From Bacteroidota bacterium (lineage in GTDB: Bacteria > Bacteroidota > Bacteroidia > UKL13-3): DNA of 36,441 nucleotides. Numbering within the stretch: the first letter of the stretch is position 1; every line of letters starts with the position of its first letter. Location of the stretch: NCBI GenBank assembly GCA_947457395.1, contig CANGVA010000020.1:1-36441 (forward strand). The letters are read 5' to 3'. Positions 35,212 to 36,441 of this stretch are shown piece after piece. The position numbers and the translations under genes were made by a program. The notes under the pieces were generated by a model. It did not search any database and was not told the origin of the DNA. It saw only the letters and a list, made by a program, of their open reading frames with translations.

Positions 35212-35220
35212 TAAATGCGT

Positions 35221-35365
35221 TCCAATCTTTCAATCTTCTAATCTTTCAATCTCCTAATCTTCCAATCTCCTAATCTTTCAATCTTCTAATCTTTCAATCT
35301 TCTAATCTTTCAATCTTCTAATCTTTCAATCTCCTAATCTTTCAATCTTCTAATTTTCTAATTTT
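35221..35365 (+). repeat. Tandem array of an 8-bp unit (TYYAATCT), higher order 16 bp
   Basis: About 18 copies of T-Y-Y-AATCT are arranged as eight 16-bp dimers of the type TTCAATCT-TCTAATCT, plus flanking half units. Variation is confined almost entirely to C/T changes at positions 2 and 3, with C-to-T drift of AATCT to AATTT in the last copies. The plus strand is almost free of G across the array. Confidence 0.92.
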
Positions 35366-35380
35366 CCTTACCTTCCCTGC

Positions 35381-36441
35381 ATGACTAATGAGGAAATTGC
35401 CGAACTATTTAAATGGTATGCCAATCTGAGCGAACTGCATGATGGAAATCCGTTTAAAATTAAATCTTACGCAGCGGCTGCTTTTAAAATAGATAAACTC
35501 TCCACGCCCCTGGAGGGCAAATCTGTGGCTGAGCTGGAAGCCATGGAAGGCATTGGCAAAAGTATTGCCCAAAAGATTTTTGAAATAAACCAATCTGGTT
35601 CGTTTACCGAGTTGGTTGAACTTATTAACGATACCCCGCAAGGTGTTATTGATTTGTTTAAGGTAAAAGGAATAGGCCCTAAAAAAATTGCCTATATCTG
35701 GAAACAACTGGGTATTGAAAGCATGGGCGAACTGCTTTATGCCTGCAATGAAAACCGCCTGGCCCAGGCCAAAGGTTTCGGGCTAAAAACACAGCAGGCC
35801 GTTAAAGAAAGTATTGAATTTATTTTTAGCAATGCCAACAAGTTTCATTATGCCAAACTGGAAAAGCCTGCCCTGCAACTGCTAAATGAACTGCAACAGC
35901 AACCTTTTGTAAGCCGCATATCTTTTACCGGTGAGCTGCGCAGAAAAAACGAAACACTGGATCATATCTCATTGCTTATTGCAGCCAACCAAACACAACT
36001 GCTGGCCTACCTGCAAAACAGCATGGAAGTTACTGTGCATGAAAACCACCTGTCGTTTCGCTACAACGAGGGTTACCCTGTATCTGTTATCCTAACCGAT
36101 GAGGCACATTTTGATGAAACACTTTTTATCTCTACTGCTGCACCTGCCCATCTAAAACAACTGGAACAGGCCGGTGCAAATATAAAAGCCGGTAATGAGC
36201 AGGCCATTTATGCTTCTGCCGGTTTAGCTTTTATTGAGCCTGAAATGCGCGAAGGCCTGGGCGAAGTGGAAAAAGCACGAACAAACAGCCTGCCCCTGCT
36301 TATTGAGCACAGCCACCTTAAAGGCATTTTGCATAACCATACCAACTACTCCGATGGTGCCAATACCTTAACCGAGATGGCCGTTTTTTGCAAAGAAGCA
36401 GGATTTGAATACCTGGGCATTTGCGACCACTCCAAAAGTGC
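35381..36441 (+). CDS. PolX-like protein with helix-hairpin-helix and PHP domains (3' partial)
   Basis: This gene runs off the window; 353 codons are visible from the ATG at 35381. The N-terminal 8-kDa-like domain (1-50) and two helix-hairpin-helix motifs are clear: GIGKSIAQKI (about 59-68) and VKGIGPKKIAYIW (about 94-106). The nucleotidyltransferase region follows, with LRRKNET at 186-192. The expected DxD is occupied by H195 and S197, and the later strand that normally carries the third Asp has S235 instead. An IYASAGLAFIEPEMREG segment matches the linker of PolX proteins. The PHP domain then begins with HNHTNYSDG, whose metal-binding residues are intact. PolX proteins act in DNA repair as gap-filling polymerases with a PHP exonuclease; this one probably keeps DNA binding and the nuclease but not polymerisation. 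It starts 15 bp after the repeat array. Confidence 0.85.
   Translation, partial: MTNEEIAELFKWYANLSELHDGNPFKIKSYAAAAFKIDKLSTPLEGKSVAELEAMEGIGKSIAQKIFEINQSGSFTELVELINDTPQGVIDLFKVKGIGPKKIAYIWKQLGIESMGELLYACNENRLAQAKGFGLKTQQAVKESIEFIFSNANKFHYAKLEKPALQLLNELQQQPFVSRISFTGELRRKNETLDHISLLIAANQTQLLAYLQNSMEVTVHENHLSFRYNEGYPVSVILTDEAHFDETLFISTAAPAHLKQLEQAGANIKAGNEQAIYASAGLAFIEPEMREGLGEVEKARTNSLPLLIEHSHLKGILHNHTNYSDGANTLTEMAVFCKEAGFEYLGICDHSKS

What the first reader, a model, noticed from the sequence alone, without database searches (positions are those of the whole stretch)
35381..36441. PolX-like protein with all three polymerase aspartates apparently replaced
In active PolX enzymes the palm reads G-S-x-R-R-x-x-E-T-x-G-D-x-D, with a third Asp in a later D-L-R strand. 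Here the aligned residues are G184-E-L-R-R-K-N-E-T-L-D-H195-I-S197, and the later strand reads V-S235-V-I. The surrounding scaffold (helix-hairpin-helix pair, linker motif, PHP motif HNHTxxSDG) is well conserved, so this is not general decay. The gene may have become a DNA-guided PHP nuclease or phosphatase with a structural polymerase domain.
Basis: partly seen in the sequence, partly recalled or inferred. Interest (0 to 1): 0.6.

Follow-up and report, generated by a model that had tools for sequence, protein, structure and literature searches.

The report
Noncanonical PolX exonuclease, polymerase site lost
This is a bacterial PolX repair protein that has lost its DNA-copying site but very likely keeps a DNA-trimming nuclease; such proteins are already known to be the usual kind in this group of bacteria, so the find is real but ordinary.

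Summary
Window 35381-36441 holds the first 353 codons of a PolX gene cut by the contig end. Aligned with Thermus PolX and other PolX proteins, the catalytic Asp triad is H195/S197/S235. A same-genus genome carries the full 554-aa gene with the same HSS triad and all nine PHP metal ligands. This is the 'noncanonical PolX' group published in 2022 (PMC9226535), mainly Bacteroidetes and Deinococcus-Thermus; two Deinococcus members were shown to lack polymerase activity and to be Mn-dependent 3'-5' exonucleases. Most likely function: PHP 3'-5' exonuclease with a structural palm. Modest additions: no Ku in any of 35 genomes of this family, so the proposed NHEJ link does not hold here; the palm is relaxed but still constrained, with a clade-specific acid at position 194; and the contig end shows an abrupt divergence step (strain mosaic or recombination).

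The parts
35381..36441 (+). polX gene, first 353 codons; the 3' part (about 200 codons of the PHP domain) is lost at the contig end
   Evidence: ORF open at 3' end; NF006375 E 8e-56; same-genus full gene L032:3001-4665
35381..35605 (+). N-terminal 8-kDa HHH domain (residues 1-75)
   Evidence: Pfam HHH_8 E 2e-15
35606..35830 (+). thumb-like HHH region (residues 76-150)
   Evidence: Pfam HHH_5 E 1e-10
35831..36100 (+). palm domain (residues 151-240), catalytically altered
   Evidence: alignment to Thermus PolX; orthologue's fold matches PolX structures
35963..35971 (+). H195 and S197, at the positions of catalytic D198 and D200 of Thermus PolX
36083..36085 (+). S235, at the position of the third catalytic Asp
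36101..36250 (+). shortened fingers domain with lost dNTP-pocket motif (residues 241-290)
   Evidence: 51 residues v. 67 in Thermus; ISTAAPAHL for YLTGSKAHS
36326..36441 (+). start of the PHP domain, with ligands H318, H320, D325, H350
   Evidence: Pfam PHP; nine-ligand check in relatives

Best explanation
The gene encodes a noncanonical PolX. The palm cannot bind the two catalytic metals, so it does not synthesise DNA (inferred from the lost triad and dNTP pocket). The C-terminal PHP domain, whose nine-residue site is complete in the orthologue, acts as a Mn-dependent 3'-5' exonuclease and probably a 3'-end or AP-site cleaner in DNA repair (inferred from tested Deinococcus relatives). The two HHH regions and the residual palm fold hold gapped or nicked DNA and present its 3' end (inferred).
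For: HSS at the triad with unambiguous alignment. All 39 nearest orthologues read have altered triads and all have HHDHEHHDH in PHP. They form one clade at 100/100 with the window inside. A confident model (pLDDT 94) of the same-genus full protein matches Thermus PolX (Z 43) and Deinococcus PolX (Z 40) over the whole length. PHP is under strong constraint (dN/dS 0.02-0.10); palm+fingers weaker but still constrained (0.02-0.31). Published: Deinococcus PolXs with AEE and ARE triads lack polymerase activity and are exonucleases; most Bacteroidetes PolXs are in this cluster.
Against: The assayed noncanonical PolXs in that paper are from Deinococcus, not Bacteroidota. The window lacks five of the nine PHP ligands because the contig ends, so the full PHP site is shown only for relatives. 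An AEE enzyme was once reported to polymerise, which the 2022 paper attributes to a possible contaminant.
Confidence: 0.9

Rival explanations
1. The palm keeps or has regained some metal-dependent activity through displaced acidic residues such as D194 and E191.
For: Position 194 is acidic in 27 of 32 altered rows and Gly in 32 of 32 canonical rows; position 197 is D/E in 28 of 32 altered rows.
Against: The window has S at 197 and S at 235; dNTP-pocket motifs and fingers are degraded; an enzyme with two acids left (AEE) bound no metal in its crystal and had no polymerase activity.
Confidence: 0.05
2. Pseudogene or general decay.
For: The gene is incomplete in the window; palm conservation is low.
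Against: The truncation is a contig edge: contig C15 ends with the last 25 bases of the gene (stop included) and the downstream 124 bases of the same locus. No internal stops; HHH and PHP conserved; purifying selection in all domains among relatives.
Confidence: 0.02
3. The protein works mainly as a phosphatase or phosphoesterase on small substrates rather than on DNA.
For: The PHP fold also matches YcdX and histidinol phosphatases (Z 19-28).
Against: The HHH DNA-binding parts are as conserved as in canonical PolX (0.65-0.73 v. 0.71-0.72); tested noncanonical PolXs degrade DNA.
Confidence: 0.03

Closest known systems
Noncanonical (altered) prokaryotic PolX, Prostova et al. 2022 (PMC9226535), e.g. 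Deinococcus radiodurans PolX (2W9M)
   Same: Domain order HHH-palm-fingers-PHP, substituted catalytic triad, shortened fingers, lost GS and steric-gate motifs, intact PHP site, Bacteroidetes membership
   Different: Triad HSS here, no acid left at any triad position; Deinococcus radiodurans has AEE. No Ku in this family of genomes
Canonical bacterial PolX (Thermus thermophilus 3AU2/3AU6; Bacillus subtilis)
   Same: Whole-length homology and fold (phmmer E 3e-43; Z 43 for the orthologue)
   Different: Polymerase triad and dNTP pocket lost; fingers 16 residues shorter than in Thermus
PolX-like proteins of Actinobacteria without a polymerase region (PMC12926913)
   Same: PHP domain kept while polymerase function is absent
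   Different: There the polymerase domain is missing; here its fold is retained

Membership tests
Noncanonical PolX (Prostova 2022) | Substitution of catalytic triad acids in the palm | tested here: met
   HSS instead of DDD
Noncanonical PolX (Prostova 2022) | Deletions in palm and/or fingers | tested here: met
   G184 to third site 52 v. 57 residues; fingers 51 v. 67; measured between alignment landmarks, not with the paper's own domain borders
Noncanonical PolX (Prostova 2022) | Loss of conserved dNTP-binding residues (GS motif, steric gate, Asn) | tested here: met
   ISTAAPAHL for YLTGSKAHS; canonical N at position 258 is L
Noncanonical PolX (Prostova 2022) | Intact nine-residue PHP active site | tested here: inconclusive
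   Four ligands present in the window; all nine in the same-genus orthologue and in all altered orthologues; the window's own last five are not in the assembly
Noncanonical PolX (Prostova 2022) | Falls in the main altered clade | tested here: met
   Inside a 40-row all-altered Bacteroidota clade, 100/100; its join to Deinococcus is not resolved because of long branches
Noncanonical PolX (Prostova 2022) | No DNA polymerase activity; Mn-dependent 3'-5' exonuclease | not testable with these tools
   Needs purified protein
Canonical PolX | Three catalytic acids in the palm | tested here: not met
   HSS

The most novel reading that the evidence does not exclude
The altered Bacteroidota palm was not merely inactivated but given a new job: a clade-specific motif G-x-x-R-R-K-x-E-[VI]-[LI]-[DE]-x-x-[DE] is conserved while the triad drifts, which could be a DNA-end grip or a regulatory contact that steers the PHP nuclease. 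The window lineage keeps most of it but has S at the last position.
Probability: 0.12. Interest if true: 0.4.

Novelty: new member of a known kind. Interest (0 to 1): 0.13.

Why it matters
It is one more clear case of a polymerase-family protein kept for its nuclease, with a triad stripped of every acid. It mainly shows that the published noncanonical PolX type prevails in this Bacteroidota family, and that it persists there without Ku, so end joining cannot be its general role.

Tried and rejected
The B. subtilis record is not held in the annotated collections, so B. subtilis PolX was not aligned directly; Thermus, Deinococcus and 31 canonical PolXs of the phylum served instead. Pseudogene and assembly-error readings were rejected. 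A second, canonical PolX in the same genome was sought and not found. NHEJ link: Ku absent in the own genome and in all 35 family genomes; the one ATP-dependent ligase (L075) is a 531-aa protein next to what looks like a metallo-beta-lactamase-type exonuclease, not read as LigD (judged by eye). Model coordinates are not exported, so distances in the palm site could not be measured. The single origin of altered PolX in Bacteroidota and Deinococcus could be neither shown nor excluded.

Full report
What is there. The open frame at 35381-36439 (+) starts with ATG and runs off the window. The window is a whole contig, C20, of its genome (2.54 Mb, 34 contigs, 99.96% complete). Searching the genome with the 3' part of the same-genus gene shows that contig C15 ends exactly (54093) with the last 25 bases of polX, stop included, plus the downstream 124 bases, 100% identical to the relative. 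So the gene is cut by an assembly gap of about 579 bases, not by mutation. A full copy of 554 aa is present in a same-genus genome (L016/L032, JAJTFA010000004.1; 94% identity over 353 aa).

The observation. Families matched are HHH_8, HHH_5, PHP, and NF006375 PolX (E 8e-56, below the curated cut-off, as the piece is partial and divergent). The Pfam thumb model matches only weakly and no Pfam palm model is reported. phmmer against solved structures gives Thermus PolX (E 3e-43) and Deinococcus PolX (E 3e-27).

Is it particular to this gene? No. Of 34 other genomes of the family, 30 carry a PolX match better than 1e-20. Every one of the 39 nearest orthologues read (the same-genus copy included) has an altered triad; types include EEK, QDK, EEQ, KEE, QEH, SDA, AEI, CER, RQD and others. 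All have the complete HHDHEHHDH PHP signature. By contrast 30 PolXs from other families of the phylum (picked by highest score to the model, so biased to canonical) and one extra PolX in G033 have DDD and a YFTGSKEHN-type motif. In a tree of 73 rows the altered Bacteroidota proteins form one clade of 40, support 100/100, that contains the window. The position of Deinococcus PolX is unsafe because of its long branch.

Constraint. Between close relatives dN/dS is 0.02-0.10 for PHP, 0.02-0.16 for the HHH part and 0.02-0.31 for palm+fingers (Nei-Gojobori, some dS saturated). Mean column conservation in the altered clade is 0.77 for PHP and 0.65-0.73 for HHH, about equal to canonical PolX, but 0.44 for palm and 0.50 for fingers against 0.73 and 0.77 in canonical. 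The polymerase part is thus relaxed but not free. Within it G184, R187, R188, K189, E191 and H257 stay conserved, position 194 is acidic in 27 of 32 altered rows (Gly in all canonical rows), and position 197 is D/E in 28 of 32. The window lineage is among the few with no acid at any triad position.

Structure. AlphaFold2 on the same-genus protein with 39 aligned sequences gives pLDDT 94. It matches Thermus PolX 3AU6 (Z 43, rmsd 5.1 over 534 residues) and Deinococcus PolX (Z 40, rmsd 14.6 over 516, so domains shifted) over the full length, and YcdX and histidinol phosphatases for PHP alone. The palm fold is therefore kept.

What is known. Prostova et al. 2022 (PMC9226535) describe this group: 27.5% of prokaryotic PolXs with altered triads, 302 triad variants, mostly one cluster made of Bacteroidetes and Deinococcus-Thermus, with palm and fingers deletions, lost dNTP motifs and an intact PHP site; several Bacteroidetes genes were resequenced to exclude artefacts; D. 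radiodurans (AEE) and D. gobiensis (ARE) PolX have no polymerase activity and strong Mn-dependent 3'-5' exonuclease activity. PMC12926913 supports it in a wider survey. The finding is a member of that group.

Additions of small weight. The 2022 paper links noncanonical PolX in Bacteroidetes to NHEJ (about 49% of PolX-bearing genomes). In the family of this window none of 35 genomes has Ku, while 31 have PolX. So NHEJ is not its role here; 3'-end cleaning in base-excision or single-strand-break repair is the likelier setting (inference).

Conclusion.

Noticed in passing
36081-36441 v. the same stretch of L032: Abrupt divergence step: codons 1-250 differ from the same-genus gene at 7 bases, while the last 361 bases of the window are only 83% identical to it. 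Suggests recombination with another lineage, or a strain mosaic that also broke the assembly here.
   Followed up: partly
35220-35358: Tandem array of 8.8 copies of TTCTAATCTTTCAATC (93% match) just upstream of polX; the same-genus genome does not align over 35214-35315.
   Followed up: no
L002 (G033:C38:18946-20622): A same-family genome carries a second, canonical DDD PolX besides the altered type, grouping on long branches with Thermus PolX, as might follow horizontal transfer.
   Followed up: partly
L075:82-2430 (G000:C7): ATP-dependent DNA ligase gene directly after a gene that looks like a metallo-beta-lactamase-type exonuclease; no Ku in the genome.
   Followed up: partly
L038, L027, L040, L024: Four altered PolXs with a further palm deletion of about 20 residues (35-37 residues from G184 to the third site v. 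57 in Thermus), together in one supported clade.
   Followed up: no
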